Source: Gardnerella vaginalis | Lineage (GTDB): Bacteria; Actinomycetota; Actinomycetes; Actinomycetales; Bifidobacteriaceae | Reading direction: 5' to 3' | Length of the DNA: 14,109 nt | NCBI RefSeq assembly: GCF_040427915.1 | Contig: NZ_JBETXJ010000001.1 | Location: 1-14,109, forward strand | Shown: positions 1 through 14,109 of the stretch, piece by piece | Numbering within the stretch: position 1 is the first letter of the stretch | How the letters are laid out: every line of letters begins with the position of its first letter | Position numbers and translations under genes: made by a program | Notes under the pieces: model-generated | Databases searched by the model: none | The model's input: only the letters and a program-made list of their open reading frames with translations | What the model was told of the DNA's origin: nothing

Positions 1-105
1 CATCCTCGAGCAGACCGCCATTAAAATGTCTAAATTCACGGCATTAAATTCTCTTAAGCCTTGATTGTTAAACGCATTAGCATATTTCACGATTTGATTA
101 CCCAT
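1..105 (-). CDS. repB: Rep_3 (RepB-type) initiator, N-terminal 35 codons, cut by the left window edge
   Basis: The ATG is the complement of CAT at 103-105, and the reading runs leftward off the window. The 35 visible residues (MGNQIVKYANAFNNQG and on) match the start of the full copies at 2806-3636 and 6337-7167. The rest lies outside the window, or, if the molecule is a circle, at 13397-14109 plus about 13 missing bases. The function is described under the complete copy. Confidence 0.9.
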   Translation of the reverse strand, partial: MGNQIVKYANAFNNQGLREFNAVNLDILMAVCSRM

Positions 106-113
106 AATTAAAT

Positions 114-127
114 AATACCATGGTATT
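114..127. promoter_or_regulatory. 14-bp perfect palindrome, candidate autorepression operator for Rep_3
   Basis: AATACCATGGTATT is a perfect inverted repeat centred at 120/121, nine bases upstream of the leftward Rep_3 ATG. Each arm is the AATACC/GGTATT half-site that also ends the iterons at 155-194. In Rep_3 plasmids, Rep dimers typically bind an inverted version of the iteron to repress rep, while monomers bind the direct repeats. The right part overlaps a possible extended -10 (TGGTATTAT on the minus strand). It also occurs at 3645-3658, 7176-7189 and 10705-10718. Confidence 0.6.
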
Positions 128-130
128 TTA

Positions 131-194
131 TTTCCCAAAATAGTAGTTTAATACCTCCCAAAAAGGTATTTAAGTCTCCCAAAAAGGTATTTTA
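131..194. repeat. Iterons, three consecutive direct repeats (core CCCAAAAAGGTATT)
   Basis: Two near-identical 19-mers, CTCCCAAAAAGGTATTTAA at 155-173 and CTCCCAAAAAGGTATTTTA at 176-194, follow a diverged copy, TTCCCAAAATAGTAGTTTA at 132-150. The CCC positions (134, 157, 178) are spaced 23 and 21 bases, about two helical turns, as expected for Rep_3 iterons. Two further relatives are CTCCCAACGGGTTTC near 214 and TTCCCAAAAAAGTAGTTTT at 281-299. Bases 150-170 can also be read as an inverted repeat (AATACC, nine bases, GGTATT). Confidence 0.75.
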
Positions 195-422
195 ATAGTC
201 CGTCAGCCCTACTCTCCCAACGGGTTTCAGCCGCCTAAAAGATTATATAAAAGATTTATATATAAAAAGAGTTAATTTTTTTCCCAAAAAAGTAGTTTTT
301 TAGAAAAGATAGATTTTGTTCATTATGTTTAAGATTCTTAAGACTATTCTCGATGACTTAGAAGGAAAAACCCTGCTTCTTAAACCACCAAAATAAATAT
401 TTTTTTGACGATATTTATATGG

Positions 423-446
423 TGACATGACCTTATAGGTATGTCA
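423..446. promoter_or_regulatory. Imperfect palindrome upstream of the two-gene operon, candidate operator
   Basis: TGACAT, an extra G, then ACCT (423-433) mirrors AGGTATGTCA (437-446) around a three-base centre, giving ten pairs with one bulge. It ends 34 bases before the start of the 102-aa gene, a normal promoter position. I cannot place a convincing -35/-10 pair: TTGACG at 405-410 and GTGACA at 422-427 resemble -35 boxes, but no good -10 follows at 16-18 bases. The ribbon-helix-helix-like product of the second gene is the natural candidate ligand; this is inference. Confidence 0.4.
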
Positions 447-480
447 TTAATTTACAAATATCTATTAAAAGGAAAAAATA

Positions 481-789
481 ATGCAAAATCTATATGGAAA
501 TTTTCAAGCAGTAGTTCTCGAACAGGTTACTGAGAATGATTTTGAGCAAGTTATGAATAAAGACGGCTCAGAAAAACAAAGGGATGGTAAACCAGTATTC
601 CAGCTCACAAAAGATTCCAGAAGCAAGATGTTATTGAAAGACGGAACTGGTCTTTATACTTCTTTTAAGTTCTTGGCGTTTAAGCCAACTTTTGAAGCTG
701 GTAATTATAGTCTTAAGGCTCAAATTACGCCTTATATTGCTTCTAACTTCATAAATTACAGCATCCTTATCAGTGAGGTTCTCAAGTGA
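481..789 (+). CDS. Uncharacterised 102-aa protein, first gene of a two-gene operon (possibly OB-fold/ssDNA-binding-like)
   Basis: The ATG is preceded by AAAAGGA at 467-473, an ordinary Shine-Dalgarno at good spacing, and the gene ends in TGA at 787-789, overlapping the next ATG. I do not recognise the family with certainty. Residues 1-20 look like a beta strand followed by an acidic segment; residues 29-40 (GSEKQRDGKPVF) form a charged turn; the rest is mostly alternating polar and hydrophobic residues typical of beta strands (VFQL, LYTSFKFLAF, YSLKAQITPYI, NYSILIS). There is no signal peptide or membrane segment. An all-beta small protein in a replication operon suggests an OB-fold, as in small phage and plasmid ssDNA-binding proteins, and a rolling-circle plasmid would have use for one. 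That is a guess from composition. Identical copies occur in every unit. Confidence 0.85.
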   Translation: MQNLYGNFQAVVLEQVTENDFEQVMNKDGSEKQRDGKPVFQLTKDSRSKMLLKDGTGLYTSFKFLAFKPTFEAGNYSLKAQITPYIASNFINYSILISEVLK

Positions 790-1109
790 TGTTCGGCAAA
801 GATAAGAAAGCAATAAAATTTTATGCCGATTTTGAGCTTGCAGAACTGCTTCGCAGGGCAAGTTTTTACCGACGCACGTCAATTAGCAGTCTTGTTTGCG
901 AAATTCTCACAGACCGTTTCAAGCCTGCTGTAGACCACGCACATAATACCCCTCAGGAGCCACAAAAACGCCCCTCTGAACGTGTTTTAGATAATACGGG
1001 TAGTAATTTACCTACAAGCATTAAACATCCGTTAAAACCCGCTTTTTCAGGCTTGCCTAACCCGTTCGATGAACAATTAAAGAAGAAAGCCAAAGAGTTC
1101 GGCATATAA
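789..1109 (+). CDS. Ribbon-helix-helix-like DNA-binding protein, 106 aa
   Basis: The TGATG junction makes this ATG share one base with the upstream stop, which implies translational coupling; GAGG at 775-778 can serve as ribosome binding site. A GTG at 786 would add one residue. Residues 7-44 (KAIKFYADFELAELLRRASF then RRTSISSLVCEILTDRF) have the pattern of a ribbon-helix-helix domain: a short basic beta strand, an amphipathic helix, a turn with TSISS capping the second helix. Residues 45-80 are proline-rich and probably flexible. The tail (GLPNPFDEQLKKKAKEFGI) is a short basic helix. RHH proteins of small plasmids usually repress rep (CopG-like) or act as relaxase accessories; no relaxase is present, so a regulator is more likely. 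Its operator could be the palindrome at 423-446 or those upstream of the CRESS-like rep at 1511-1524 and 1646-1661. Confidence 0.8.
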   Translation: MFGKDKKAIKFYADFELAELLRRASFYRRTSISSLVCEILTDRFKPAVDHAHNTPQEPQKRPSERVLDNTGSNLPTSIKHPLKPAFSGLPNPFDEQLKKKAKEFGI

Positions 1110-1186
1110 ACGGTTCAAAGATATTATAATTTTGTAGGGAAATCTTACGAAGTTTATTCTAAAACTAAACCATTTATCTAATTCAT

Positions 1187-1228
1187 AAAAGCACTTGAGA
1201 GTTTTTCTCAGGTGCTTTTATTGTTTTT
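1187..1228. terminator. Rho-independent terminator after the two-gene operon, possibly bidirectional
   Basis: AAAAGCACTTGAGA (1187-1200) pairs with TCTCAGGTGCTTTT (1206-1219) over 14 pairs with one G-T wobble and a GTTTT loop, followed by TTGTTTTT. The A-run at the 5' foot also gives a T-run on the other strand, so it may work both ways. It separates the small-gene operon from the structured region and the CRESS-like rep, implying that the latter has its own promoter. Confidence 0.9.
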
Positions 1229-1241
1229 CCTGATTGCGGTA

Positions 1242-1410
1242 GTTAGCAGTGACATCTAGGCACTATATTCTTTATGCCTTTGGTGAAGTGTGCCTAGGCA
1301 TAAACTTGACGCGGAGCATGGGCGGAGCGAACAAGTTTTACGCCGTCAGGTGCCCTATTGCCACAGGCATATAGTTATTGTGCTGAATGTTGCGTTTTGG
1401 CATTGCTAAC
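1242..1410. other. Nested imperfect hairpin region, function unknown (candidate replication or RNA structure)
   Basis: No gene is seen here, and the sequence is clearly more GC-rich than its surroundings. Complementary pairs nest: GTTAGCA 1242-1248 with TGCTAAC 1404-1410; ACTAT 1262-1266 with ATAGT 1371-1375; ATGCCTTTGG 1274-1283 with CCACAGGCAT 1361-1370 (one mismatch); AAACTTG 1302-1308 with CAAGTTT 1332-1338. TGACG 1307-1311 with CGTCA 1344-1348, and CTAGGCAC 1256-1263 with GTGCCTAG 1290-1297, are competing alternatives. TGCCTAGGCA at 1291-1300 is a perfect palindrome, and GCGGAGC is directly repeated at 1311 and 1322. Candidates are part of the rolling-circle origin, a single-strand origin, or a structured RNA. 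Confidence 0.6.
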
Positions 1411-1421
1411 GTGATGAGGAA

Positions 1422-1478
1422 AGCGACTAAGAGCGGCGTAGCCGTTCCGACCTCGTCGGAATGTTACTCTTAGTCGCT
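1422..1478. other. T-shaped three-way-junction fold with CRESS-like nonanucleotide, candidate rolling-circle origin
   Basis: The outer stem AGCGACTAAGAG (1422-1433) pairs perfectly with CTCTTAGTCGCT (1467-1478). Inside are two small hairpins: CGGC-GTA-GCCG (1434-1444) and TTCCGAC-CTC-GTCGGAA (1445-1461). The only unpaired bases at the junction are TGTTA (1462-1466). They lie within GAATGTTAC (1459-1467), which matches the CRESS origin consensus NANTATTAC at six of seven fixed positions; the family nicks after position 7, here between 1465 and 1466. The element lies 239 bp upstream of the CRESS-like rep start. Structure is seen; origin function is inferred. Confidence 0.6.
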
Positions 1479-1716
1479 ATTTGGAAAATAGAAAATAATG
1501 TCTTATTTTCGTTGATATATCAACCTTTTTAGCATTTTCCATTTTATAATTTTTATCATTTAGAAAAGTATTTTTAAGCATTTTTTATCATTTGGAAAAT
1601 TTTTTAGCTTTCAGTTTTTAATTTCTCCGATATTAAACCTTTAGGTCGGTTAGATAACCGAATGTGTAAGCCCTTTTAGGGGAAGTTTTTTATTTTATAT
1701 GGAGATTTAATTAAAA
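1479..1716. promoter_or_regulatory. AT-rich leader of the CRESS-like rep, with direct repeats and palindromes
   Basis: No gene is visible. ATTTRGAAAA occurs three times, at 1479-1488, 1558-1567 and 1590-1599; the latter two belong to a 17-bp repeat TTTTATCATTTRGAAAA (1551-1567 and 1583-1599, one mismatch). GTTGATATATCAAC at 1511-1524 is a perfect 14-bp palindrome, and TCGGTTA-GA-TAACCGA at 1646-1661 a 7-bp-arm inverted repeat. TATAAT at 1545-1550 is a perfect -10 hexamer, but no -35 is well placed. CCCT-TTT-AGGG at 1671-1681 followed by a T-rich run resembles a weak attenuator hairpin. The rep ribosome binding site is GGAG at 1701-1704, 12 bases before the ATG, which is rather long. Confidence 0.55.
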
Positions 1717-2769
1717 ATGAATGTAAAAATCTCAAAGTATTTTATTGGCACGCTTAAAGCAGAAGATTTTTCCTCTGATGAGGTTAAATCAGCTTTAGAT
1801 TCGGTGTGCAACAATTATGTTTTTCAAAAAGAACAGGGTTCTAAAACTGGGTATGAGCACTACCAAATCTGCTTGAATACTAAAAATTCAACGACTATTT
1901 TTGCGTTAAAAAATAAGCTCGTTACTCTTAATAAAAAATTCGACCCTCTTTACCTCGAACCTGCCAAATCCCAATTTGCTGTCGAACACTATTGCTCAAA
2001 ATCTGATACCTATGTTGAAGGCACTCGTGTCTTTTCTAGCCCAGAATATGAGCAAAAAATTAAAAATAAATATAATAATAATTTAAGTAAAAATAATAAT
2101 TCTTCCGAAAAAGTTACGTTCAAAATGATGGACGATTACTTTAATAAGAATGTTTCGGAACACGGCACAGATTGGTTTATCTCACCTTTTTGTGAATATG
2201 CATGGTTTTTCAAACAGCATAAATCGTTCTATGAGTTGAGTTGTAAAGGTTATTTTGACACTCTTGCTCTTGCTAATCGCTCCACTTATAAGAAGGTTTA
2301 TTATATTTACGGAATAACTGGTAGTGGTAAGTCGACGCTGATACGTGCTCTCTTTCCTAGTTATAAAAACTGTTTCCCCTTTTCTAATTCCGAACGCTGG
2401 TTTGCAAATGGTTATAAATGCGAATCAATCGGTATCTTTGACGATACACCTCTCCCTTCTATTTCAACATTTCTAACCATGACTAATCCTCAACCGTTTA
2501 ATTTCGACGTTAAAGGTGGCATAGTTGCCAATTGCTTAAATACGATTATTATTCTTTCCAACCTGTCGCCTGAGAAATATTTTGATTATTCTCATATGGA
2601 TTCCAAGCAGGTCGATGCTGTTAAACGTCGCATTACGCATAGCTGGTATTTTGATAATCCCCTTCCTGAAGGCTACTTATTCGATGAAGATAAAGATTTA
2701 AGCATTTATTTGTCAGACGACGTTCGTCGCACAGCTTTCGAGACTATAAGAAAAGAGATTCAAAAATGA
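1717..2769 (+). CDS. rep: CRESS-type replication initiator Rep: HUH endonuclease plus superfamily 3 helicase, 350 aa
   Basis: This protein should nick the plasmid at its rolling-circle origin, stay bound through a tyrosine, unwind the duplex and rejoin the strand. HUH motifs are in the expected order: motif I YFIGTLK (8-14), motif II HYQ (48-50, the H-U-Q form usual in CRESS Reps) and motif III YCSK (92-95), where Tyr92 is the likely nucleophile and Lys95 the conserved helper. An Asn/Lys-rich linker (about 113-132) leads to the helicase: Walker A GITGSGKST (199-207), Walker B IGIFDDTP (238-245), motif C TIIILSN (276-282) and an arginine finger in VKRRI (302-306). Length and order match circovirus-like Reps and the plasmid-encoded pCRESS relatives known from bacteria, not pMV158 or pC194 Reps, which lack SF3. 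A TAA at 1708 blocks earlier in-frame starts. All key residues are intact in all four copies. It is convergent with Rep_3. Confidence 0.92.
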   Translation: MNVKISKYFIGTLKAEDFSSDEVKSALDSVCNNYVFQKEQGSKTGYEHYQICLNTKNSTTIFALKNKLVTLNKKFDPLYLEPAKSQFAVEHYCSKSDTYVEGTRVFSSPEYEQKIKNKYNNNLSKNNNSSEKVTFKMMDDYFNKNVSEHGTDWFISPFCEYAWFFKQHKSFYELSCKGYFDTLALANRSTYKKVYYIYGITGSGKSTLIRALFPSYKNCFPFSNSERWFANGYKCESIGIFDDTPLPSISTFLTMTNPQPFNFDVKGGIVANCLNTIIILSNLSPEKYFDYSHMDSKQVDAVKRRITHSWYFDNPLPEGYLFDEDKDLSIYLSDDVRRTAFETIRKEIQK

Positions 2770-2805
2770 TTAATAATGTAACACCGTTATTAATGGTTGT
2801 TGATT
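2769..2805. terminator. AT-rich hairpin between convergent rep genes, likely bidirectional terminator
   Basis: ATTAATAA (2769-2776) pairs with TTATTAAT (2787-2794), extended inward by a T-G and a G-C pair, with a TAACAC loop; a T-rich run follows before the Rep_3 stop at 2806. The stem is nearly all A-T, so it would be weaker than the hairpin at 1187, but its place between convergent stops fits termination from both sides. It also occurs at 6300, 9831 and 13360. Confidence 0.5.
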
Positions 2806-3636
2806 TTATTTAAGATGAAAGGTCTTTTTCATCAGCTGCCATGGTGTTAGTCCATCATGTTCGCGTTTGAATTTTTCGAATTCTTCTTTATGTTTTTTCG
2901 CGGATTCTTGGCTTTCCATGGCTTTATTTATTTTTTCGTTCTGTTCTTCAACTGCTGTTATTTTTTCTTTGTTGAACGTAAATTCGTATGCGATTATTTT
3001 TCTTCTTCCTCGTTTTATTTCGGAAGAATAAATTGGTTTGACTTTAAGTCCAATTAATGGCTCTAATTCACTTAAAATTGGCTTTATGACTTTGCTGTTT
3101 ATGTTTGTTTTATAGCTATCTGGTATATCAAGTAGTCTTCTAAAATCGTTTACGTTCACTCGCCATATGCCTGTGTTTCTGAACATTTTTAGTCTTCGAA
3201 ACGCTTCTTTGCTATAGGAACTTTTTAGTTTCATGTATGAAGATAACTCAAACCGAGTAAAATTCGAACCTAAATTATTCAGCAAGAACGCGAATTGTTT
3301 ATTTACTGCAACGGTTAGTTTTGCTTCTTTTAGATTTGTTTTGAAGCATGAGAAAAGATTGAATTGGATGTATTCGTCTTTATCTTCATAAGCAAAATTA
3401 AGTGCTAATAGTTTCTTATTTGTTTCAATAATTCGTTGAGCTAATTCAGCGTTACTAATATTTTTTTCGCAACACATTAATTTCTTTAGCTCTGAGAATG
3501 TGAATGTAATTTCATCATCGTTCTTTTCTCGCATCCTCGAGCAGACCGCCATTAAAATGTCTAAATTCACGGCATTAAATTCTCTTAAGCCTTGATTGTT
3601 AAACGCATTAGCATATTTCACGATTTGATTACCCAT
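2806..3636 (-). CDS. repB: Rep_3 superfamily theta-replication initiator (RepB type), 276 aa
   Basis: This is the iteron-binding initiator expected to act at the origin just upstream of its start (3637-3831), melting the AT-rich region and recruiting host replication proteins. It has the two winged-helix layout of Rep_3: WH1 about residues 1-125, opening MGNQIVKYANAFN as in lactobacillal and lactococcal RepB, and WH2 about 126-222, with the hallmark FTRFELSSYMKLKSSYSKE (126-144), RLKMFRNTG (148-156) and FRRLLDIPDSY (165-175). Residues 222-262 are a charged, probably coiled-coil tail. I chose the ATG at 3634-3636 because homologues start there; a TTG at 3669 would add 11 residues but has no better ribosome binding site. 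No Shine-Dalgarno precedes the ATG, so translation may be weak, leaderless or coupled to a 7-codon leader. The gene crosses the unit 1/2 junction intact. Confidence 0.93.
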   Translation of the reverse strand: MGNQIVKYANAFNNQGLREFNAVNLDILMAVCSRMREKNDDEITFTFSELKKLMCCEKNISNAELAQRIIETNKKLLALNFAYEDKDEYIQFNLFSCFKTNLKEAKLTVAVNKQFAFLLNNLGSNFTRFELSSYMKLKSSYSKEAFRRLKMFRNTGIWRVNVNDFRRLLDIPDSYKTNINSKVIKPILSELEPLIGLKVKPIYSSEIKRGRRKIIAYEFTFNKEKITAVEEQNEKINKAMESQESAKKHKEEFEKFKREHDGLTPWQLMKKTFHLK

Positions 3637-3831
3637 AATTAAATAATACCATGGTATTTTATTTCCCAAAATAGTAGTTTAATACCTCCCAAAAAGGTAT
3701 TTAAGTCTCCCAAAAAGGTATTTTAATAGTCCGTCAGCCCTACTCTCCCAACGGGTTTCAGCCGCCTAAAAGATTATATAAAAGATTTATATATAAAAAG
3801 AGTTAATTTTTTTCCCAAAAAAGTAGTTTTT
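3637..3831. other. Rep_3 origin region, copy 2
   Basis: Same as 106-300, here seen with the intact gene it serves: palindrome 3645-3658, iterons 3663-3725, AT tract about 3769-3811. Confidence 0.75.
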
Positions 3832-4011
3832 TAGAAAAGATAGATTTTGTTCATTATGTTTAAGATTCTTAAGACTATTCTCGATGACTTAGAAGGAAAA
3901 ACCCTGCTTCTTAAACCACCAAAATAAATATTTTTTTGACGATATTTATATGGTGACATGACCTTATAGGTATGTCATTAATTTACAAATATCTATTAAA
4001 AGGAAAAAATA

Positions 4012-4320
4012 ATGCAAAATCTATATGGAAATTTTCAAGCAGTAGTTCTCGAACAGGTTACTGAGAATGATTTTGAGCAAGTTATGAATAAAGACGGCTC
4101 AGAAAAACAAAGGGATGGTAAACCAGTATTCCAGCTCACAAAAGATTCCAGAAGCAAGATGTTATTGAAAGACGGAACTGGTCTTTATACTTCTTTTAAG
4201 TTCTTGGCGTTTAAGCCAACTTTTGAAGCTGGTAATTATAGTCTTAAGGCTCAAATTACGCCTTATATTGCTTCTAACTTCATAAATTACAGCATCCTTA
4301 TCAGTGAGGTTCTCAAGTGA
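4012..4320 (+). CDS. Uncharacterised 102-aa protein, copy 2
   Basis: Identical translation, ribosome binding site and overlap with the downstream gene as at 481-789. Confidence 0.85.
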   Translation: MQNLYGNFQAVVLEQVTENDFEQVMNKDGSEKQRDGKPVFQLTKDSRSKMLLKDGTGLYTSFKFLAFKPTFEAGNYSLKAQITPYIASNFINYSILISEVLK

Positions 4321-4640
4321 TGTTCGGCAAAGATAAGAAAGCAATAAAATTTTATGCCGATTTTGAGCTTGCAGAACTGCTTCGCAGGGCAAGTTTTTAC
4401 CGACGCACGTCAATTAGCAGTCTTGTTTGCGAAATTCTCACAGACCGTTTCAAGCCTGCTGTAGACCACGCACATAATACCCCTCAGGAGCCACAAAAAC
4501 GCCCCTCTGAACGTGTTTTAGATAATACGGGTAGTAATTTACCTACAAGCATTAAACATCCGTTAAAACCCGCTTTTTCAGGCTTGCCTAACCCGTTCGA
4601 TGAACAATTAAAGAAGAAAGCCAAAGAGTTCGGCATATAA
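4320..4640 (+). CDS. Ribbon-helix-helix-like protein, copy 2
   Basis: Identical to the copy at 789-1109, including the TGATG junction. Confidence 0.8.
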   Translation: MFGKDKKAIKFYADFELAELLRRASFYRRTSISSLVCEILTDRFKPAVDHAHNTPQEPQKRPSERVLDNTGSNLPTSIKHPLKPAFSGLPNPFDEQLKKKAKEFGI

Positions 4641-4717
4641 ACGGTTCAAAGATATTATAATTTTGTAGGGAAATCTTACGAAGTTTATTCTAAAACTAAA
4701 CCATTTATCTAATTCAT

Positions 4718-4759
4718 AAAAGCACTTGAGAGTTTTTCTCAGGTGCTTTTATTGTTTTT
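4718..4759. terminator. Rho-independent terminator, copy 2
   Basis: Same 14-pair stem, GTTTT loop and T-run as at 1187-1228. Confidence 0.9.
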
Positions 4760-4772
4760 CCTGATTGCGGTA

Positions 4773-5247
4773 GTTAGCAGTGACATCTAGGCACTATATT
4801 CTTTATGCCTTTGGTGAAGTGTGCCTAGGCATAAACTTGACGCGGAGCATGGGCGGAGCGAACAAGTTTTACGCCGTCAGGTGCCCTATTGCCACAGGCA
4901 TATAGTTATTGTGCTGAATGTTGCGTTTTGGCATTGCTAACGTGATGAGGAAAGCGACTAAGAGCGGCGTAGCCGTTCCGACCTCGTCGGAATGTTACTC
5001 TTAGTCGCTATTTGGAAAATAGAAAATAATGTCTTATTTTCGTTGATATATCAACCTTTTTAGCATTTTCCATTTTATAATTTTTATCATTTAGAAAAGT
5101 ATTTTTAAGCATTTTTTATCATTTGGAAAATTTTTTAGCTTTCAGTTTTTAATTTCTCCGATATTAAACCTTTAGGTCGGTTAGATAACCGAATGTGTAA
5201 GCCCTTTTAGGGGAAGTTTTTTATTTTATATGGAGATTTAATTAAAA
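4773..5247. other. Structured non-coding region and CRESS-like rep leader, copy 2
   Basis: Holds the nested hairpin (4773-4941), the T-shaped fold with GAATGTTAC (4953-5009), the palindrome (5042-5055) and the ATTTRGAAAA repeats (5010, 5089, 5121). No gene seen. Confidence 0.6.
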
Positions 5248-6300
5248 ATGAATGTAAAAATCTCAAAGTATTTTATTGGCACGCTTAAAGCAGAAGATTT
5301 TTCCTCTGATGAGGTTAAATCAGCTTTAGATTCGGTGTGCAACAATTATGTTTTTCAAAAAGAACAGGGTTCTAAAACTGGGTATGAGCACTACCAAATC
5401 TGCTTGAATACTAAAAATTCAACGACTATTTTTGCGTTAAAAAATAAGCTCGTTACTCTTAATAAAAAATTCGACCCTCTTTACCTCGAACCTGCCAAAT
5501 CCCAATTTGCTGTCGAACACTATTGCTCAAAATCTGATACCTATGTTGAAGGCACTCGTGTCTTTTCTAGCCCAGAATATGAGCAAAAAATTAAAAATAA
5601 ATATAATAATAATTTAAGTAAAAATAATAATTCTTCCGAAAAAGTTACGTTCAAAATGATGGACGATTACTTTAATAAGAATGTTTCGGAACACGGCACA
5701 GATTGGTTTATCTCACCTTTTTGTGAATATGCATGGTTTTTCAAACAGCATAAATCGTTCTATGAGTTGAGTTGTAAAGGTTATTTTGACACTCTTGCTC
5801 TTGCTAATCGCTCCACTTATAAGAAGGTTTATTATATTTACGGAATAACTGGTAGTGGTAAGTCGACGCTGATACGTGCTCTCTTTCCTAGTTATAAAAA
5901 CTGTTTCCCCTTTTCTAATTCCGAACGCTGGTTTGCAAATGGTTATAAATGCGAATCAATCGGTATCTTTGACGATACACCTCTCCCTTCTATTTCAACA
6001 TTTCTAACCATGACTAATCCTCAACCGTTTAATTTCGACGTTAAAGGTGGCATAGTTGCCAATTGCTTAAATACGATTATTATTCTTTCCAACCTGTCGC
6101 CTGAGAAATATTTTGATTATTCTCATATGGATTCCAAGCAGGTCGATGCTGTTAAACGTCGCATTACGCATAGCTGGTATTTTGATAATCCCCTTCCTGA
6201 AGGCTACTTATTCGATGAAGATAAAGATTTAAGCATTTATTTGTCAGACGACGTTCGTCGCACAGCTTTCGAGACTATAAGAAAAGAGATTCAAAAATGA
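5248..6300 (+). CDS. rep: CRESS-type Rep, copy 2
   Basis: Same 350-aa product as at 1717-2769, with all HUH and SF3 motifs intact. Confidence 0.92.
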   Translation: MNVKISKYFIGTLKAEDFSSDEVKSALDSVCNNYVFQKEQGSKTGYEHYQICLNTKNSTTIFALKNKLVTLNKKFDPLYLEPAKSQFAVEHYCSKSDTYVEGTRVFSSPEYEQKIKNKYNNNLSKNNNSSEKVTFKMMDDYFNKNVSEHGTDWFISPFCEYAWFFKQHKSFYELSCKGYFDTLALANRSTYKKVYYIYGITGSGKSTLIRALFPSYKNCFPFSNSERWFANGYKCESIGIFDDTPLPSISTFLTMTNPQPFNFDVKGGIVANCLNTIIILSNLSPEKYFDYSHMDSKQVDAVKRRITHSWYFDNPLPEGYLFDEDKDLSIYLSDDVRRTAFETIRKEIQK

Positions 6301-6336
6301 TTAATAATGTAACACCGTTATTAATGGTTGTTGATT

Positions 6337-7167
6337 TTATTTAAGATGAAAGGTCTTTTTCATCAGCTGCCATGGTGTTAGTCCATCATGTTCGCGTTTG
6401 AATTTTTCGAATTCTTCTTTATGTTTTTTCGCGGATTCTTGGCTTTCCATGGCTTTATTTATTTTTTCGTTCTGTTCTTCAACTGCTGTTATTTTTTCTT
6501 TGTTGAACGTAAATTCGTATGCGATTATTTTTCTTCTTCCTCGTTTTATTTCGGAAGAATAAATTGGTTTGACTTTAAGTCCAATTAATGGCTCTAATTC
6601 ACTTAAAATTGGCTTTATGACTTTGCTGTTTATGTTTGTTTTATAGCTATCTGGTATATCAAGTAGTCTTCTAAAATCGTTTACGTTCACTCGCCATATG
6701 CCTGTGTTTCTGAACATTTTTAGTCTTCGAAACGCTTCTTTGCTATAGGAACTTTTTAGTTTCATGTATGAAGATAACTCAAACCGAGTAAAATTCGAAC
6801 CTAAATTATTCAGCAAGAACGCGAATTGTTTATTTACTGCAACGGTTAGTTTTGCTTCTTTTAGATTTGTTTTGAAGCATGAGAAAAGATTGAATTGGAT
6901 GTATTCGTCTTTATCTTCATAAGCAAAATTAAGTGCTAATAGTTTCTTATTTGTTTCAATAATTCGTTGAGCTAATTCAGCGTTACTAATATTTTTTTCG
7001 CAACACATTAATTTCTTTAGCTCTGAGAATGTGAATGTAATTTCATCATCGTTCTTTTCTCGCATCCTCGAGCAGACCGCCATTAAAATGTCTAAATTCA
7101 CGGCATTAAATTCTCTTAAGCCTTGATTGTTAAACGCATTAGCATATTTCACGATTTGATTACCCAT
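6337..7167 (-). CDS. repB: Rep_3 initiator, copy 2 (intact, spans units 2 and 3)
   Basis: Same 276-aa product as at 2806-3636; the ATG is the complement of 7165-7167. The reading frame crosses the unit junction at 7062/7063 without disruption, supporting a circular source molecule. Confidence 0.93.
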   Translation of the reverse strand: MGNQIVKYANAFNNQGLREFNAVNLDILMAVCSRMREKNDDEITFTFSELKKLMCCEKNISNAELAQRIIETNKKLLALNFAYEDKDEYIQFNLFSCFKTNLKEAKLTVAVNKQFAFLLNNLGSNFTRFELSSYMKLKSSYSKEAFRRLKMFRNTGIWRVNVNDFRRLLDIPDSYKTNINSKVIKPILSELEPLIGLKVKPIYSSEIKRGRRKIIAYEFTFNKEKITAVEEQNEKINKAMESQESAKKHKEEFEKFKREHDGLTPWQLMKKTFHLK

Positions 7168-7362
7168 AATTAAATAATACCATGGTATTTTATTTCCCAA
7201 AATAGTAGTTTAATACCTCCCAAAAAGGTATTTAAGTCTCCCAAAAAGGTATTTTAATAGTCCGTCAGCCCTACTCTCCCAACGGGTTTCAGCCGCCTAA
7301 AAGATTATATAAAAGATTTATATATAAAAAGAGTTAATTTTTTTCCCAAAAAAGTAGTTTTT
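7168..7362. other. Rep_3 origin region, copy 3
   Basis: Palindrome 7176-7189, iterons 7194-7256 and AT tract, as in copy 1. Confidence 0.75.
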
Positions 7363-7542
7363 TAGAAAAGATAGATTTTGTTCATTATGTTTAAGATTCT
7401 TAAGACTATTCTCGATGACTTAGAAGGAAAAACCCTGCTTCTTAAACCACCAAAATAAATATTTTTTTGACGATATTTATATGGTGACATGACCTTATAG
7501 GTATGTCATTAATTTACAAATATCTATTAAAAGGAAAAAATA

Positions 7543-7851
7543 ATGCAAAATCTATATGGAAATTTTCAAGCAGTAGTTCTCGAACAGGTTACTGAGAATG
7601 ATTTTGAGCAAGTTATGAATAAAGACGGCTCAGAAAAACAAAGGGATGGTAAACCAGTATTCCAGCTCACAAAAGATTCCAGAAGCAAGATGTTATTGAA
7701 AGACGGAACTGGTCTTTATACTTCTTTTAAGTTCTTGGCGTTTAAGCCAACTTTTGAAGCTGGTAATTATAGTCTTAAGGCTCAAATTACGCCTTATATT
7801 GCTTCTAACTTCATAAATTACAGCATCCTTATCAGTGAGGTTCTCAAGTGA
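7543..7851 (+). CDS. Uncharacterised 102-aa protein, copy 3
   Basis: Identical translation to 481-789. Confidence 0.85.
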   Translation: MQNLYGNFQAVVLEQVTENDFEQVMNKDGSEKQRDGKPVFQLTKDSRSKMLLKDGTGLYTSFKFLAFKPTFEAGNYSLKAQITPYIASNFINYSILISEVLK

Positions 7852-8171
7852 TGTTCGGCAAAGATAAGAAAGCAATAAAATTTTATGCCGATTTTGAGCT
7901 TGCAGAACTGCTTCGCAGGGCAAGTTTTTACCGACGCACGTCAATTAGCAGTCTTGTTTGCGAAATTCTCACAGACCGTTTCAAGCCTGCTGTAGACCAC
8001 GCACATAATACCCCTCAGGAGCCACAAAAACGCCCCTCTGAACGTGTTTTAGATAATACGGGTAGTAATTTACCTACAAGCATTAAACATCCGTTAAAAC
8101 CCGCTTTTTCAGGCTTGCCTAACCCGTTCGATGAACAATTAAAGAAGAAAGCCAAAGAGTTCGGCATATAA
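7851..8171 (+). CDS. Ribbon-helix-helix-like protein, copy 3
   Basis: Identical translation to 789-1109. Confidence 0.8.
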   Translation: MFGKDKKAIKFYADFELAELLRRASFYRRTSISSLVCEILTDRFKPAVDHAHNTPQEPQKRPSERVLDNTGSNLPTSIKHPLKPAFSGLPNPFDEQLKKKAKEFGI

Positions 8172-8248
8172 ACGGTTCAAAGATATTATAATTTTGTAGG
8201 GAAATCTTACGAAGTTTATTCTAAAACTAAACCATTTATCTAATTCAT

Positions 8249-8290
8249 AAAAGCACTTGAGAGTTTTTCTCAGGTGCTTTTATTGTTTTT
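8249..8290. terminator. Rho-independent terminator, copy 3
   Basis: Same hairpin and T-run as at 1187-1228. Confidence 0.9.
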
Positions 8291-8303
8291 CCTGATTGCG
8301 GTA

Positions 8304-8778
8304 GTTAGCAGTGACATCTAGGCACTATATTCTTTATGCCTTTGGTGAAGTGTGCCTAGGCATAAACTTGACGCGGAGCATGGGCGGAGCGAACAAGTTT
8401 TACGCCGTCAGGTGCCCTATTGCCACAGGCATATAGTTATTGTGCTGAATGTTGCGTTTTGGCATTGCTAACGTGATGAGGAAAGCGACTAAGAGCGGCG
8501 TAGCCGTTCCGACCTCGTCGGAATGTTACTCTTAGTCGCTATTTGGAAAATAGAAAATAATGTCTTATTTTCGTTGATATATCAACCTTTTTAGCATTTT
8601 CCATTTTATAATTTTTATCATTTAGAAAAGTATTTTTAAGCATTTTTTATCATTTGGAAAATTTTTTAGCTTTCAGTTTTTAATTTCTCCGATATTAAAC
8701 CTTTAGGTCGGTTAGATAACCGAATGTGTAAGCCCTTTTAGGGGAAGTTTTTTATTTTATATGGAGATTTAATTAAAA
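8304..8778. other. Structured non-coding region and CRESS-like rep leader, copy 3
   Basis: Nested hairpin 8304-8472, T-shaped fold 8484-8540, palindrome 8573-8586 and AT-rich repeats 8613-8661. No gene seen. Confidence 0.6.
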
Positions 8779-9831
8779 ATGAATGTAAAAATCTCAAAGT
8801 ATTTTATTGGCACGCTTAAAGCAGAAGATTTTTCCTCTGATGAGGTTAAATCAGCTTTAGATTCGGTGTGCAACAATTATGTTTTTCAAAAAGAACAGGG
8901 TTCTAAAACTGGGTATGAGCACTACCAAATCTGCTTGAATACTAAAAATTCAACGACTATTTTTGCGTTAAAAAATAAGCTCGTTACTCTTAATAAAAAA
9001 TTCGACCCTCTTTACCTCGAACCTGCCAAATCCCAATTTGCTGTCGAACACTATTGCTCAAAATCTGATACCTATGTTGAAGGCACTCGTGTCTTTTCTA
9101 GCCCAGAATATGAGCAAAAAATTAAAAATAAATATAATAATAATTTAAGTAAAAATAATAATTCTTCCGAAAAAGTTACGTTCAAAATGATGGACGATTA
9201 CTTTAATAAGAATGTTTCGGAACACGGCACAGATTGGTTTATCTCACCTTTTTGTGAATATGCATGGTTTTTCAAACAGCATAAATCGTTCTATGAGTTG
9301 AGTTGTAAAGGTTATTTTGACACTCTTGCTCTTGCTAATCGCTCCACTTATAAGAAGGTTTATTATATTTACGGAATAACTGGTAGTGGTAAGTCGACGC
9401 TGATACGTGCTCTCTTTCCTAGTTATAAAAACTGTTTCCCCTTTTCTAATTCCGAACGCTGGTTTGCAAATGGTTATAAATGCGAATCAATCGGTATCTT
9501 TGACGATACACCTCTCCCTTCTATTTCAACATTTCTAACCATGACTAATCCTCAACCGTTTAATTTCGACGTTAAAGGTGGCATAGTTGCCAATTGCTTA
9601 AATACGATTATTATTCTTTCCAACCTGTCGCCTGAGAAATATTTTGATTATTCTCATATGGATTCCAAGCAGGTCGATGCTGTTAAACGTCGCATTACGC
9701 ATAGCTGGTATTTTGATAATCCCCTTCCTGAAGGCTACTTATTCGATGAAGATAAAGATTTAAGCATTTATTTGTCAGACGACGTTCGTCGCACAGCTTT
9801 CGAGACTATAAGAAAAGAGATTCAAAAATGA
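8779..9831 (+). CDS. rep: CRESS-type Rep, copy 3
   Basis: Same 350-aa product as at 1717-2769, intact. Confidence 0.92.
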   Translation: MNVKISKYFIGTLKAEDFSSDEVKSALDSVCNNYVFQKEQGSKTGYEHYQICLNTKNSTTIFALKNKLVTLNKKFDPLYLEPAKSQFAVEHYCSKSDTYVEGTRVFSSPEYEQKIKNKYNNNLSKNNNSSEKVTFKMMDDYFNKNVSEHGTDWFISPFCEYAWFFKQHKSFYELSCKGYFDTLALANRSTYKKVYYIYGITGSGKSTLIRALFPSYKNCFPFSNSERWFANGYKCESIGIFDDTPLPSISTFLTMTNPQPFNFDVKGGIVANCLNTIIILSNLSPEKYFDYSHMDSKQVDAVKRRITHSWYFDNPLPEGYLFDEDKDLSIYLSDDVRRTAFETIRKEIQK

Positions 9832-9867
9832 TTAATAATGTAACACCGTTATTAATGGTTGTTGATT

Positions 9868-10696
9868 TTATTTAAGATGAAAGGTCTTTTTCATCAGCTG
9901 CCATGGTGTTAGTCCATCATGTTCGCGTTTGAATTTTTCGAATTCTTCTTTATGTTTTTTCGCGGATTCTTGGCTTTCCATGGCTTTATTTATTTTTTCG
10001 TTCTGTTCTTCAACTGCTGTTATTTTTTCTTTGTTGAACGTAAATTCGTATGCGATTATTTTTCTTCTTCCTCGTTTTATTTCGGAAGAATAAATTGGTT
10101 TGACTTTAAGTCCAATTAATGGCTCTAATTCACTTAAAATTGGCTTTATGACTTTGCTGTTTATGTTTGTTTTATAGCTATCTGGTATATCAAGTAGTCT
10201 TCTAAAATCGTTTACGTTCACTCGCCATATGCCTGTGTTTCTGAACATTTTTAGTCTTCGAAACGCTTCTTTGCTATAGGAACTTTTTAGTTTCATGTAT
10301 GAAGATAACTCAAACCGAGTAAAATTCGAACCTAAATTATTCAGCAAGAACGCGAATTGTTTATTTACTGCAACGGTTAGTTTTGCTTCTTTAGATTTGT
10401 TTTGAAGCATGAGAAAAGATTGAATTGGATGTATTCGTCTTTATCTTCATAAGCAAAATTAAGTGCTAATAGTTTCTTATTTGTTTCAATAATTCGTTGA
10501 GCTAATTCAGCGTTACTAATATTTTTTTCGCAACACATTAATTTCTTTAGCTCTGAGAATGTGAATGTAATTTCATCATCGTTCTTTTCTCGCATCCTCA
10601 GCAGACCGCCATTAAAATGTCTAAATTCACGGCATTAAATTCTCTTAAGCCTTGATTGTTAAACGCATTAGCATATTTCACGATTTGATTACCCAT
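9868..10696 (-). pseudogene. repB: Rep_3 initiator, copy 3, broken by two 1-base deletions (probably sequencing errors)
   Basis: Read leftward from the ATG at 10694-10696, the product is normal for 32 residues, then the lost G between 10599 and 10600 (CTCGAG becomes CTCAG) brings a TGA at 10598-10600. The original frame reopens at the ATG ending at 10595 and runs to a second break at 10390-10392, where TTTT has become TTT. The remainder (to the TAA at 9868) is in a third frame and encodes the intact WH2 half. The gene is two bases shorter than its sisters and otherwise looks the same. A loss in a T-run is a typical long-read error; the two undamaged copies show that the real gene is open. Confidence 0.85.
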
Positions 10697-10891
10697 AATT
10701 AAATAATACCATGGTATTTTATTTCCCAAAATAGTAGTTTAATACCTCCCAAAAAGGTATTTAAGTCTCCCAAAAAGGTATTTTAATAGTCCGTCAGCCC
10801 TACTCTCCCAACGGGTTTCAGCCGCCTAAAAGATTATATAAAAGATTTATATATAAAAAGAGTTAATTTTTTTCCCAAAAAAGTAGTTTTT
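10697..10891. other. Rep_3 origin region, copy 4
   Basis: Palindrome 10705-10718, iterons 10723-10785 and AT tract, as in copy 1. Confidence 0.75.
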
Positions 10892-11071
10892 TAGAAAAGA
10901 TAGATTTTGTTCATTATGTTTAAGATTCTTAAGACTATTCTCGATGACTTAGAAGGAAAAACCCTGCTTCTTAAACCACCAAAATAAATATTTTTTTGAC
11001 GATATTTATATGGTGACATGACCTTATAGGTATGTCATTAATTTACAAATATCTATTAAAAGGAAAAAATA

Positions 11072-11380
11072 ATGCAAAATCTATATGGAAATTTTCAAGC
11101 AGTAGTTCTCGAACAGGTTACTGAGAATGATTTTGAGCAAGTTATGAATAAAGACGGCTCAGAAAAACAAAGGGATGGTAAACCAGTATTCCAGCTCACA
11201 AAAGATTCCAGAAGCAAGATGTTATTGAAAGACGGAACTGGTCTTTATACTTCTTTTAAGTTCTTGGCGTTTAAGCCAACTTTTGAAGCTGGTAATTATA
11301 GTCTTAAGGCTCAAATTACGCCTTATATTGCTTCTAACTTCATAAATTACAGCATCCTTATCAGTGAGGTTCTCAAGTGA
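11072..11380 (+). CDS. Uncharacterised 102-aa protein, copy 4
   Basis: Identical translation to 481-789. Confidence 0.85.
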   Translation: MQNLYGNFQAVVLEQVTENDFEQVMNKDGSEKQRDGKPVFQLTKDSRSKMLLKDGTGLYTSFKFLAFKPTFEAGNYSLKAQITPYIASNFINYSILISEVLK

Positions 11381-11700
11381 TGTTCGGCAAAGATAAGAAA
11401 GCAATAAAATTTTATGCCGATTTTGAGCTTGCAGAACTGCTTCGCAGGGCAAGTTTTTACCGACGCACGTCAATTAGCAGTCTTGTTTGCGAAATTCTCA
11501 CAGACCGTTTCAAGCCTGCTGTAGACCACGCACATAATACCCCTCAGGAGCCACAAAAACGCCCCTCTGAACGTGTTTTAGATAATACGGGTAGTAATTT
11601 ACCTACAAGCATTAAACATCCGTTAAAACCCGCTTTTTCAGGCTTGCCTAACCCGTTCGATGAACAATTAAAGAAGAAAGCCAAAGAGTTCGGCATATAA
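11380..11700 (+). CDS. Ribbon-helix-helix-like protein, copy 4
   Basis: Identical translation to 789-1109. Confidence 0.8.
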   Translation: MFGKDKKAIKFYADFELAELLRRASFYRRTSISSLVCEILTDRFKPAVDHAHNTPQEPQKRPSERVLDNTGSNLPTSIKHPLKPAFSGLPNPFDEQLKKKAKEFGI

Positions 11701-11777
11701 ACGGTTCAAAGATATTATAATTTTGTAGGGAAATCTTACGAAGTTTATTCTAAAACTAAACCATTTATCTAATTCAT

Positions 11778-11819
11778 AAAAGCACTTGAGAGTTTTTCTC
11801 AGGTGCTTTTATTGTTTTT
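11778..11819. terminator. Rho-independent terminator, copy 4
   Basis: Same hairpin and T-run as at 1187-1228. Confidence 0.9.
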
Positions 11820-11832
11820 CCTGATTGCGGTA

Positions 11833-12307
11833 GTTAGCAGTGACATCTAGGCACTATATTCTTTATGCCTTTGGTGAAGTGTGCCTAGGCATAAACTTGA
11901 CGCGGAGCATGGGCGGAGCGAACAAGTTTTACGCCGTCAGGTGCCCTATTGCCACAGGCATATAGTTATTGTGCTGAATGTTGCGTTTTGGCATTGCTAA
12001 CGTGATGAGGAAAGCGACTAAGAGCGGCGTAGCCGTTCCGACCTCGTCGGAATGTTACTCTTAGTCGCTATTTGGAAAATAGAAAATAATGTCTTATTTT
12101 CGTTGATATATCAACCTTTTTAGCATTTTCCATTTTATAATTTTTATCATTTAGAAAAGTATTTTTAAGCATTTTTTATCATTTGGAAAATTTTTTAGCT
12201 TTCAGTTTTTAATTTCTCCGATATTAAACCTTTAGGTCGGTTAGATAACCGAATGTGTAAGCCCTTTTAGGGGAAGTTTTTTATTTTATATGGAGATTTA
12301 ATTAAAA
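11833..12307. other. Structured non-coding region and CRESS-like rep leader, copy 4
   Basis: Nested hairpin 11833-12001, T-shaped fold 12013-12069, palindrome 12102-12115 and AT-rich repeats 12142-12190. No gene seen. Confidence 0.6.
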
Positions 12308-13360
12308 ATGAATGTAAAAATCTCAAAGTATTTTATTGGCACGCTTAAAGCAGAAGATTTTTCCTCTGATGAGGTTAAATCAGCTTTAGATTCGGTGTGC
12401 AACAATTATGTTTTTCAAAAAGAACAGGGTTCTAAAACTGGGTATGAGCACTACCAAATCTGCTTGAATACTAAAAATTCAACGACTATTTTTGCGTTAA
12501 AAAATAAGCTCGTTACTCTTAATAAAAAATTCGACCCTCTTTACCTCGAACCTGCCAAATCCCAATTTGCTGTCGAACACTATTGCTCAAAATCTGATAC
12601 CTATGTTGAAGGCACTCGTGTCTTTTCTAGCCCAGAATATGAGCAAAAAATTAAAAATAAATATAATAATAATTTAAGTAAAAATAATAATTCTTCCGAA
12701 AAAGTTACGTTCAAAATGATGGACGATTACTTTAATAAGAATGTTTCGGAACACGGCACAGATTGGTTTATCTCACCTTTTTGTGAATATGCATGGTTTT
12801 TCAAACAGCATAAATCGTTCTATGAGTTGAGTTGTAAAGGTTATTTTGACACTCTTGCTCTTGCTAATCGCTCCACTTATAAGAAGGTTTATTATATTTA
12901 CGGAATAACTGGTAGTGGTAAGTCGACGCTGATACGTGCTCTCTTTCCTAGTTATAAAAACTGTTTCCCCTTTTCTAATTCCGAACGCTGGTTTGCAAAT
13001 GGTTATAAATGCGAATCAATCGGTATCTTTGACGATACACCTCTCCCTTCTATTTCAACATTTCTAACCATGACTAATCCTCAACCGTTTAATTTCGACG
13101 TTAAAGGTGGCATAGTTGCCAATTGCTTAAATACGATTATTATTCTTTCCAACCTGTCGCCTGAGAAATATTTTGATTATTCTCATATGGATTCCAAGCA
13201 GGTCGATGCTGTTAAACGTCGCATTACGCATAGCTGGTATTTTGATAATCCCCTTCCTGAAGGCTACTTATTCGATGAAGATAAAGATTTAAGCATTTAT
13301 TTGTCAGACGACGTTCGTCGCACAGCTTTCGAGACTATAAGAAAAGAGATTCAAAAATGA
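12308..13360 (+). CDS. rep: CRESS-type Rep, copy 4
   Basis: Same 350-aa product as at 1717-2769, intact. Confidence 0.92.
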   Translation: MNVKISKYFIGTLKAEDFSSDEVKSALDSVCNNYVFQKEQGSKTGYEHYQICLNTKNSTTIFALKNKLVTLNKKFDPLYLEPAKSQFAVEHYCSKSDTYVEGTRVFSSPEYEQKIKNKYNNNLSKNNNSSEKVTFKMMDDYFNKNVSEHGTDWFISPFCEYAWFFKQHKSFYELSCKGYFDTLALANRSTYKKVYYIYGITGSGKSTLIRALFPSYKNCFPFSNSERWFANGYKCESIGIFDDTPLPSISTFLTMTNPQPFNFDVKGGIVANCLNTIIILSNLSPEKYFDYSHMDSKQVDAVKRRITHSWYFDNPLPEGYLFDEDKDLSIYLSDDVRRTAFETIRKEIQK

Positions 13361-13396
13361 TTAATAATGTAACACCGTTATTAATGGTTGTTGATT

Positions 13397-14109
13397 TTAT
13401 TTAAGATGAAAGGTCTTTTTCATCAGCTGCCATGGTGTTAGTCCATCATGTTCGCGTTTGAATTTTTCGAATTCTTCTTTATGTTTTTTCGCGGATTCTT
13501 GGCTTTCCATGGCTTTATTTATTTTTTCGTTCTGTTCTTCAACTGCTGTTATTTTTTCTTTGTTGAACGTAAATTCGTATGCGATTATTTTTCTTCTTCC
13601 TCGTTTTATTTCGGAAGAATAAATTGGTTTGACTTTAAGTCCAATTAATGGCTCTAATTCACTTAAAATTGGCTTTATGACTTTGCTGTTTATGTTTGTT
13701 TTATAGCTATCTGGTATATCAAGTAGTCTTCTAAAATCGTTTACGTTCACTCGCCATATGCCTGTGTTTCTGAACATTTTTAGTCTTCGAAACGCTTCTT
13801 TGCTATAGGAACTTTTTAGTTTCATGTATGAAGATAACTCAAACCGAGTAAAATTCGAACCTAAATTATTCAGCAAGAACGCGAATTGTTTATTTACTGC
13901 AACGGTTAGTTTTGCTTCTTTTAGATTTGTTTTGAAGCATGAGAAAAGATTGAATTGGATGTATTCGTCTTTATCTTCATAAGCAAAATTAAGTGCTAAT
14001 AGTTTCTTATTTGTTTCAATAATTCGTTGAGCTAATTCAGCGTTACTAATATTTTTTTCGCAACACATTAATTTCTTTAGCTCTGAGAATGTGAATGTAA
14101 TTTCATCAT
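13397..14109 (-). CDS. repB: Rep_3 initiator, copy 4, 5' end cut by the right window edge
   Basis: The frame is open from the window edge to the TAA at 13397-13399 and matches the C-terminal ~237 residues of the intact copies. It restores TTTT where copy 3 has TTT. The missing N-terminal part equals what is seen at 1-105 plus about 13 absent bases, so joining the two window ends as they stand would not give an open gene. Confidence 0.92.
   Translation of the reverse strand, partial: DEITFTFSELKKLMCCEKNISNAELAQRIIETNKKLLALNFAYEDKDEYIQFNLFSCFKTNLKEAKLTVAVNKQFAFLLNNLGSNFTRFELSSYMKLKSSYSKEAFRRLKMFRNTGIWRVNVNDFRRLLDIPDSYKTNINSKVIKPILSELEPLIGLKVKPIYSSEIKRGRRKIIAYEFTFNKEKITAVEEQNEKINKAMESQESAKKHKEEFEKFKREHDGLTPWQLMKKTFHLK

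What the first reader, a model, noticed from the sequence alone, without database searches (positions are those of the whole stretch)
1717..3636. Two unrelated replication initiators in one 3.5-kb plasmid: a CRESS-virus-type Rep and a Rep_3 theta initiator
The unit encodes a rightward HUH+SF3 Rep and a leftward two-winged-helix Rep_3, each complete, convergent, and each adjacent to its own candidate origin. Together they take up more than half of the plasmid. Small plasmids normally carry one initiator. Possible explanations are a fusion of two replicons, host-range extension, or two modes of replication (theta maintenance and rolling-circle amplification or spread). I am not aware of a characterised plasmid with this pair, but I could not search.
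Basis: partly seen in the sequence, partly recalled or inferred. Interest (0 to 1): 0.85.

Follow-up and report, generated by a model that had tools for sequence, protein, structure and literature searches.

The report
Two-initiator small plasmid from Gardnerella
A tiny circular plasmid in a vaginal Gardnerella bacterium carries two unrelated DNA-replication starter proteins, one of the type used by small single-stranded DNA viruses and one of an ordinary plasmid type, each next to its own likely start site, in a genus described in 2025 as having no known natural plasmids.

Summary
The window is a whole 14,109-base contig: a head-to-tail array of a 3,531-bp unit, most likely an assembly concatemer of a small circular plasmid. 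The unit carries a complete CRESS-type Rep (HUH endonuclease plus SF3 helicase, 350 aa) converging on a complete Rep_3 initiator (276 aa), 36 bp apart. Each has a credible origin. The unit's only NANTNTTAC-type site lies in a strong cruciform upstream of the CRESS rep, as in plasmid p4M and another bifidobacterial contig. Four iterons lie just upstream of the Rep_3 gene. The host is Gardnerella by 16S; two 2025 papers say no natural plasmids are known there. Relatives of both initiators and of a third plasmid gene occur on small contigs (25 of 36 longest contigs are 3.5-4.3 kb). Five matching contig lengths (0.2-0.6 expected) point to one plasmid family, but only one pairs the two initiators directly. 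Best reading: a native Gardnerella plasmid family with a theta module and a rolling-circle module. That both fire is inferred, not shown. Known parts, new combination and host: a new variant of a known kind.

The parts
1..3531 (.). first copy of the 3,531-bp plasmid unit; further copies at 3532-7062, 7063-10592 and 10593-14109 (last one incomplete)
   Evidence: repeat families at 3531/3531/3529 spacing; unit-by-unit alignment; copy limits
1717..2769 (+). CRESS-type Rep: HUH endonuclease plus SF3 helicase, 350 aa
2806..3636 (-). Rep_3 initiator, two winged-helix domains, 276 aa from ATG 3636 (open frame extends to TTG 3669)
   Evidence: PF01051 and PF21205 above cut-off; close relatives start at this ATG
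1422..1478 (+). candidate rolling-circle origin: 12-bp perfect arms 1422-1433 / 1467-1478 enclosing two small hairpins
   Evidence: inverted repeat; DNA fold z-score -6.3, 0 of 200 shuffles as stable
1459..1467 (+). candidate nicking nonamer GAATGTTAC (NANTNTTAC type)
   Evidence: its 8-base core pattern A[AG]T[AG]TTAC occurs once in the unit, both strands searched; same placement in p4M and G021:C19
3663..3828 (.). candidate Rep_3 iterons: 3663-3679, 3686-3702, 3707-3723, 3812-3828 (core TCCCAAAA); same in copy 1 at 132-297
   Evidence: the four + strand TCCCAAAA of the unit are all here, 0 of 2000 shuffles of the region reach four
481..789 (+). 102-aa conserved protein of unknown fold, with relatives on similar small contigs
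   Evidence: 13 relatives; no Pfam match at E <= 1 for the window protein; no structural match
786..1109 (+). 107-aa protein, ribbon-helix-helix-like by eye (possible copy-number or Mob-type regulator)
   Evidence: weak Arc-like hit, E 0.36; assignment is inference
1185..1221 (+). likely terminator of the 102/107-aa operon
   Evidence: 17-pair stem with T tail (listed at 4716-4752 in copy 2)
2770..2805 (.). 36-bp convergent intergenic gap with an inverted repeat (2760-2803, 82% complementary arms)

Best explanation
This is a native, circular, 3.5-kb cryptic plasmid of a Gardnerella strain, probably one of a family of 3.5-4.3-kb plasmids, built from two replication modules. Module 1: Rep_3 binds four iterons just upstream of its own gene and starts theta replication, giving steady maintenance. 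Module 2: the CRESS-type Rep binds the cruciform 240-295 bp upstream of its gene, nicks the nonamer through Tyr92 (by analogy with CRESS viruses between the second T and the A of TTAC; recalled), unwinds with its SF3 helicase and drives rolling-circle replication, giving amplification or single-stranded copies that could help spread. Shown: both genes intact with their defining motifs, both candidate origins, the repeated unit. Inferred: DNA binding, nicking, that both modules fire, and their division of labour.
For: Defining domains and motifs of both initiators. CRESS Rep homologous to p4M RepA, E 1.6e-10. The unit's only nonamer-type site lies in a cruciform (z -6.3), on the Rep strand and upstream of rep, as in p4M and G021:C19. 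Iterons confined to the Rep_3 upstream region on the + strand. Relatives of the CRESS Rep (16), the 102-aa protein (13, one without a named source) and Rep_3 (7 of 51 at 80% identity or more) have longest contigs of 3.5-4.3 kb in 10 of 16, 10 of 13 and 5 of 7 cases; 5 lengths are shared, against 0.2-0.6 expected. The 16 CRESS relatives are 349-354 aa and catalytically intact at 70-87% identity, as expected under selection, though the search admits only proteins of similar length. Host: 16S of the same assembly carries a 31-mer found in 10 stretches, 8 titled Gardnerella and 2 Bifidobacteriaceae bacterium; a Rep_3 relative (84%) is named from Gardnerella sp. DNF01199S; tetranucleotide correlation with the sampled chromosome 0.45, inside the 0.36-0.68 range of its own 45 chunks.
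Against: Only one exact contig-length match joins CRESS Rep and Rep_3 directly (4,221); the chance of at least one is 5-14%. Rep_3 P0021 has an 'ncbi' source (Gardnerella sp. DNF01199S), but none of the 16 CRESS relatives has, so some relatives may carry Rep_3 without the CRESS Rep. 0 of 9 further Gardnerella/Bifidobacteriaceae genomes show either gene (the tool warns that an empty answer without a positive control shows little). One site of the nonamer pattern somewhere in the unit is not rare by itself (0.63 expected on both strands). No DnaA-box-like site within one mismatch. Unit G+C is 34% against 41% for the sampled chromosome, and G021:C19 matches that chromosome equally well by tetranucleotides (0.44), so composition does not prove the host. 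The CRESS Rep model was poor (pLDDT 37). No functional data.
Confidence: 0.6

Rival explanations
1. Rep_3 is the sole working replicator and the CRESS Rep serves transfer: it nicks the cruciform as a relaxase-like enzyme so that a co-resident conjugative element can move the plasmid. The plasmid has no recognisable mob gene.
For: No relaxase match among its four main proteins; HUH endonuclease with a helicase and a nick-like site; a ribbon-helix-helix-like neighbour could be an accessory factor (weak). That rolling-circle Reps can support mobilisation is recalled, not from a call.
Against: The site has the build of the candidate origins in p4M and G021:C19; no conjugative element was looked for in the host.
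Confidence: 0.15
2. The CRESS Rep is the main replicator (a p4M-like plasmid) and Rep_3 is a captured, auxiliary or incompatibility module from a bifidobacterial plasmid.
For: Rep_3 is 52% identical to pNAC1 and related to many Bifidobacterium plasmids, so it has possible donors; Rep_3 with a RepA_C initiator occurs on pDOJH10L, and two Rep_3 genes on one 4.8-kb plasmid.
Against: Rep_3 relatives 81-94% identical sit on contigs of the same size class in 5 of 7 cases, so the capture would not be recent; the iterons are in place.
Confidence: 0.15
3. The contig is a chimera or contaminant: two plasmids joined by the assembler, or a plasmid of another vaginal bacterium binned with Gardnerella.
For: Unit G+C 34% vs 41%; literature says Gardnerella lacks natural plasmids and none was identified in four new Gardnerella species strains (PMC12959845, passage); no long DNA match in 58 other relatives (best E 0.008, 26 nt).
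Against: Array unbroken through both genes from copy to copy; Rep_3 relative at 84% in a named Gardnerella strain; tetranucleotide signature compatible with the chromosome; other small contigs share exact lengths among relatives of the three genes.
Confidence: 0.1

Closest known systems
Bifidobacterium pseudocatenulatum plasmid p4M (NC_003527; p4M-like cluster, pCRESS1-3 of Kazlauskas et al. 2019, PMC6668415, passages seen)
   Same: Small bifidobacterial plasmid with an HUH+SF3 CRESS-type Rep; motif III YCSK; one nonamer (TAGTGTTAC) in a hairpin just upstream of the annotated rep start, same strand
   Different: Rep only about 26% identical; p4M has an FtsK/SpoIIIE gene and no Rep_3 domain in any of its 5 annotated proteins; G+C 53% vs 34%
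pNAC1 (NC_004770) and other Bifidobacterium Rep_3 plasmids
   Same: Rep_3 initiator 52% identical over 81% of the protein; similar plasmid size, 3,538 bp
   Different: No CRESS-type Rep annotated, a MobC gene is; G+C 59%
Two-initiator bifidobacterial plasmids pDOJH10L (NC_004252) and NZ_CP079234
   Same: More than one replication initiator on one bifidobacterial plasmid
   Different: RepA_C plus Rep_3 on 10 kb, and two Rep_3 on 4.8 kb; both pairs are of theta type (RepA_C by recall); no CRESS Rep annotated
Phytoplasma pCRESS7/9 plasmids (PMC6668415, passages seen)
   Same: Mostly extrachromosomal plasmids with CRESS-type Rep plus copy-control and SSB-like genes, loosely like the 102/107-aa pair
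   Different: The paper's text has no 'Rep_3' or 'theta'; the 102-aa protein could not be shown to be an SSB

Membership tests
CRESS-type Rep (HUH endonuclease + SF3 helicase) | motif I with Thr, motif II HxQ, motif III single Tyr with Lys | tested here: met
   T12, H48, Q50, Y92, K95 invariant in 17 sequences
CRESS-type Rep (HUH endonuclease + SF3 helicase) | SF3 Walker A, Walker B, motif C with Asn | tested here: met
   GxTGxGKS, DD, IILSN invariant in 17 sequences; PF00910 just above cut-off
CRESS-type Rep (HUH endonuclease + SF3 helicase) | Pfam Viral_Rep (PF02407) above curated cut-off | tested here: not met
   13.7 bits vs 26; p4M RepA reaches 31, the G021:C19 Rep 14.2
CRESS-type Rep (HUH endonuclease + SF3 helicase) | hairpin origin with nonamer NANTATTAC or close variant (definition recalled) | tested here: met
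   GAATGTTAC in cruciform, G for A at position 5 as in p4M
pCRESS4-8 (YLxH supergroup) | YLxH in motif III | tested here: not met
   YCSK or YCTK instead; definition from passages of PMC6668415
pCRESS1-3 (p4M-like) | falls inside the clade of p4M-like Reps | tested here: inconclusive
   tree of 20 Reps: window plus 7 of its 16 relatives form one clade (100/100) on a stem of 3.26; placement with the C19 group only 92/93; no pCRESS2/3 reference sequences used
Rep_3 initiator | both winged-helix domains (PF01051, PF21205) | tested here: met
   76.6 and 46.7 bits, cut-offs 22.4 and 21.1
Rep_3 initiator | iterons near the rep gene | tested here: met
   four repeats, 3663-3828
Rep_3 initiator | DnaA box beside the iterons (not universal; recalled) | tested here: not met
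   no TTATCCACA-like site with 0 or 1 mismatch in the unit
CRESS-DNA virus | capsid protein gene | tested here: not met
   no capsid match among the four main proteins in Pfam or PHROGs; the 102-aa protein remains unknown
Dual-mode (theta plus rolling-circle) plasmid | replication from both origins, single-stranded intermediate | not testable with these tools
   needs DNA from the strain

The most novel reading that the evidence does not exclude
A first family of native Gardnerella plasmids whose members keep two unrelated working initiators as a life-cycle switch: Rep_3 theta replication for quiet maintenance and a virus-type CRESS Rep for single-stranded amplification and spread. It would be a plasmid caught between a theta replicon and a capsid-less CRESS element.
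Probability: 0.3. Interest if true: 0.8.

Novelty: new variant of a known kind. Interest (0 to 1): 0.62.

Why it matters
Two 2025 papers state that no natural plasmids are known in Gardnerella, and one suggests that vector instability there is linked to that absence. A native plasmid family would overturn this and give a natural replicon to study. [quoted passage not shown] the domains it names do not include CRESS Reps), so a conserved pair on 3.5 kb would be a clean system for asking why a plasmid keeps two initiators. CRESS-type Reps are also thought to link bacterial plasmids with eukaryotic single-stranded DNA viruses (PMC6668415, passages); an extrachromosomal, human-associated branch is useful there.

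Tried and rejected
Plasmid, phage and viral collections: no relative of the CRESS Rep; at E up to 10 only 10 weak partial matches in plasmids. DNA-level search of PLSDB: none. Viral-contig scans with the 102-aa family and with Rep_3: none. Genome-contig scan with the CRESS Rep: none.

Fold comparison of the CRESS Rep: model too poor (pLDDT 37), not searched.

CRISPR spacers against the plasmid: whole-unit DNA against 59 relatives (own genome included) gave no near-exact spacer-sized match among the listed matches; best outside hit 26 nt at 92% (the list was cut).

p4M as a precedent for the pair: rejected; none of its 5 annotated proteins has a Rep_3 domain, and its 229-aa protein does not match the Rep_3 profile (probability 0.3%).

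Full report
WHAT IS THERE. The window is contig C1 (14,109 bases) of an assembly of 1,640,757 bases in 3 contigs. It consists of head-to-tail copies of a 3,531-bp unit: copies 1 and 2 identical, two single-base deletions later in the array, the last copy cut short. This is what long-read assembly of a small circular plasmid can give (general knowledge); a true multimer cannot be excluded. Each unit has four main genes: a 102-aa protein (481-789 +), an overlapping 107-aa protein (786-1109 +), a 350-aa CRESS-type Rep (1717-2769 +) and a Rep_3 initiator (2806-3636 -, open to TTG 3669). The two initiators converge with a 36-bp gap and take 53% of the unit. Rep_3 is complete in copies 1 and 2; in copy 3 it holds both deletions and is split, and in copy 4 it is cut off by the contig end. 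The CRESS Rep is complete in all four.

THE CRESS REP. The catalytic residues of the HUH and SF3 domains are invariant in the window protein and its 16 relatives. Pfam sees the helicase just above cut-off and Viral_Rep only below it, so membership rests on motifs, on the profile match to p4M RepA (E 1.6e-10) and, for the helicase part, on matches to solved proteins named replication-associated protein or Rep (E 1e-4 to 3e-4). Motif III is YCSK or YCTK, not the YLxH of pCRESS4-8. In a tree of 20 Reps (window, 7 of its 16 relatives, p4M, G021:C19 and 10 from larger contigs of Bifidobacteriaceae genomes) the window and its relatives form one clade (100/100) on a long stem (3.26 changes per column), distant from all the others. 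The structure prediction was too poor to use.

ITS ORIGIN. At 1422-1478, upstream of the rep and on its strand, lies a 12-bp perfect inverted repeat enclosing two hairpins; as DNA it folds to -22.2 kcal/mol, z-score -6.3, 0 of 200 shuffles as stable. The only A[AG]T[AG]TTAC of the unit on either strand is at 1460-1467 inside it. The same search finds exactly one in p4M, as TAGTGTTAC in the loop of a hairpin just before the annotated repA start, and one on contig G021:C19, as TAGTATTAC at a junction of stems upstream of the rep (these two folds were not compared with shuffles). One such site somewhere in each sequence is not rare by itself (0.63, 0.31 and 0.85 expected on both strands); within 500 bases of one strand the chance is 0.043, 0.011 and 0.035. 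It is the threefold agreement in place, strand and secondary structure that counts.

THE REP_3 MODULE. Both winged-helix domains pass their cut-offs. The best PLSDB relative is 52% identical, from Bifidobacterium longum pNAC1; 2,023 records match at E 1e-5, all below 60% identity. Four repeats with core TCCCAAAA lie at 3663-3828, the first 26 bp upstream of the ATG; the four + strand copies of that core in the unit are all here, and 0 of 2000 shuffles of the region reach four; 0 of 500 shuffles reach the observed 17-base repeat score, 5 of 500 have four copies or more. No DnaA-like box with one mismatch or less was found.

HOST. The assembly's 16S contains a 31-mer that occurs in 10 stretches of the named genome collection, 8 titled Gardnerella and 2 Bifidobacteriaceae bacterium. 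The Rep_3 relative P0021 (84%) is named from Gardnerella sp. DNF01199S (taxonomy). The sampled chromosome (nine stretches) has 40.7% G+C, the plasmid 34%; tetranucleotide correlation is 0.45, within the range of the chromosome's own chunks (0.36-0.68, 20% of 45 as low or lower), while p4M, pNAC1 and NZ_CP079234 give 0.35, 0.03 and 0.17; G021:C19 gives 0.44, so this supports but does not prove the host. Nine genomes behind the 16S hits show neither gene, and among 189 genomes of the family only the window's own has a close copy of either; other matches are 36% identical or less. So the plasmid is rare in the species genomes held.

DO THE TWO GO TOGETHER ELSEWHERE? The protein database has 16 CRESS relatives (70-87% identity), 7 Rep_3 relatives at 80% or more (of 51 at E 1e-10) and 13 relatives of the 102-aa protein (one without a named source); 10 of 16, 5 of 7 and 10 of 13 have a longest contig of 3.5-4.3 kb. 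Longest-contig lengths coincide exactly in five pairs: CRESS/Rep_3 4,221; CRESS/102-aa 4,097, 4,153 and 4,180; Rep_3/102-aa 4,285. Jittering the lengths gives 0.2-0.6 coincidences, and five or more in at most 0.025% of trials; but for CRESS/Rep_3 alone at least one coincidence has a 5-14% chance. So a common plasmid family is likely and the direct pairing less certain. Against it: P0021 has an 'ncbi' source while no CRESS relative has. P0007's longest contig, 8,297, is about twice 4,148, as a dimer would be.

LITERATURE. Kularatne and Hill 2025 (PMC12054147; passages seen, abstract among them) state that no naturally occurring plasmids have been identified in Gardnerella; PMC12519793 (passages seen) says the same. 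PMC12959845 (passages) identified no plasmid in four strains of new Gardnerella species. The listings showed no report of one. Kazlauskas et al. 2019 (PMC6668415, passages) describe pCRESS1-9; outside groups 7 and 9, 97.5% of the Reps lie in elements integrated in chromosomes; the text has no 'theta' or 'Rep_3'. [quoted passage not shown] Bifidobacterium plasmids with two initiators exist, with RepA_C plus Rep_3 or two Rep_3. p4M has no Rep_3 domain in its 5 annotated proteins. Only open-licence papers were searched.

VERDICT. The finding is real. The parts are known kinds; their pairing on 3.5 kb, and the Gardnerella host, are the new points. Dual-mode replication is the best reading of the anatomy but has no functional test yet.

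Noticed in passing
L006-L018 (contigs of 94 kb to 2.5 Mb in Bifidobacteriaceae genomes): CRESS-type Reps or fragments of them also occur on large contigs of 9 other genomes of the family, probably integrated pCRESS elements; in L006, L007 and L014 the usual Walker A pattern was not found.
   Followed up: partly
L043 (G021:C19, 4,773 bp), 848-856 and 1219-2523: A small contig of another species of the same GTDB genus with a CRESS Rep and the nonamer TAGTATTAC (circovirus-like by recall) at a stem junction upstream; no Rep_3 match in that genome.
   Followed up: partly
10380-10410 and 10590-10605: Two single-base deletions late in the array, both in the Rep_3 frame of copy 3. Probably read errors.
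   Followed up: partly
1240-1480: A stretch with several inverted and direct repeats before and around the CRESS origin, possibly Rep binding sites, an sso or an oriT.
   Followed up: no
1114-1223: Sub-threshold Rfam match to Bacillus sRNA ncr1015 (E 0.06, 32.5 bits vs 60); it overlaps the terminator hairpin and is probably chance.
   Followed up: no
L021 (NZ_CP079234): A 4,776-bp Bifidobacterium pseudocatenulatum plasmid with two convergent Rep_3 initiators.
   Followed up: partly
L023 (p4M), 1170-1457: A p4M protein weakly resembles DUF961 (E 0.0036, below cut-off).
   Followed up: no
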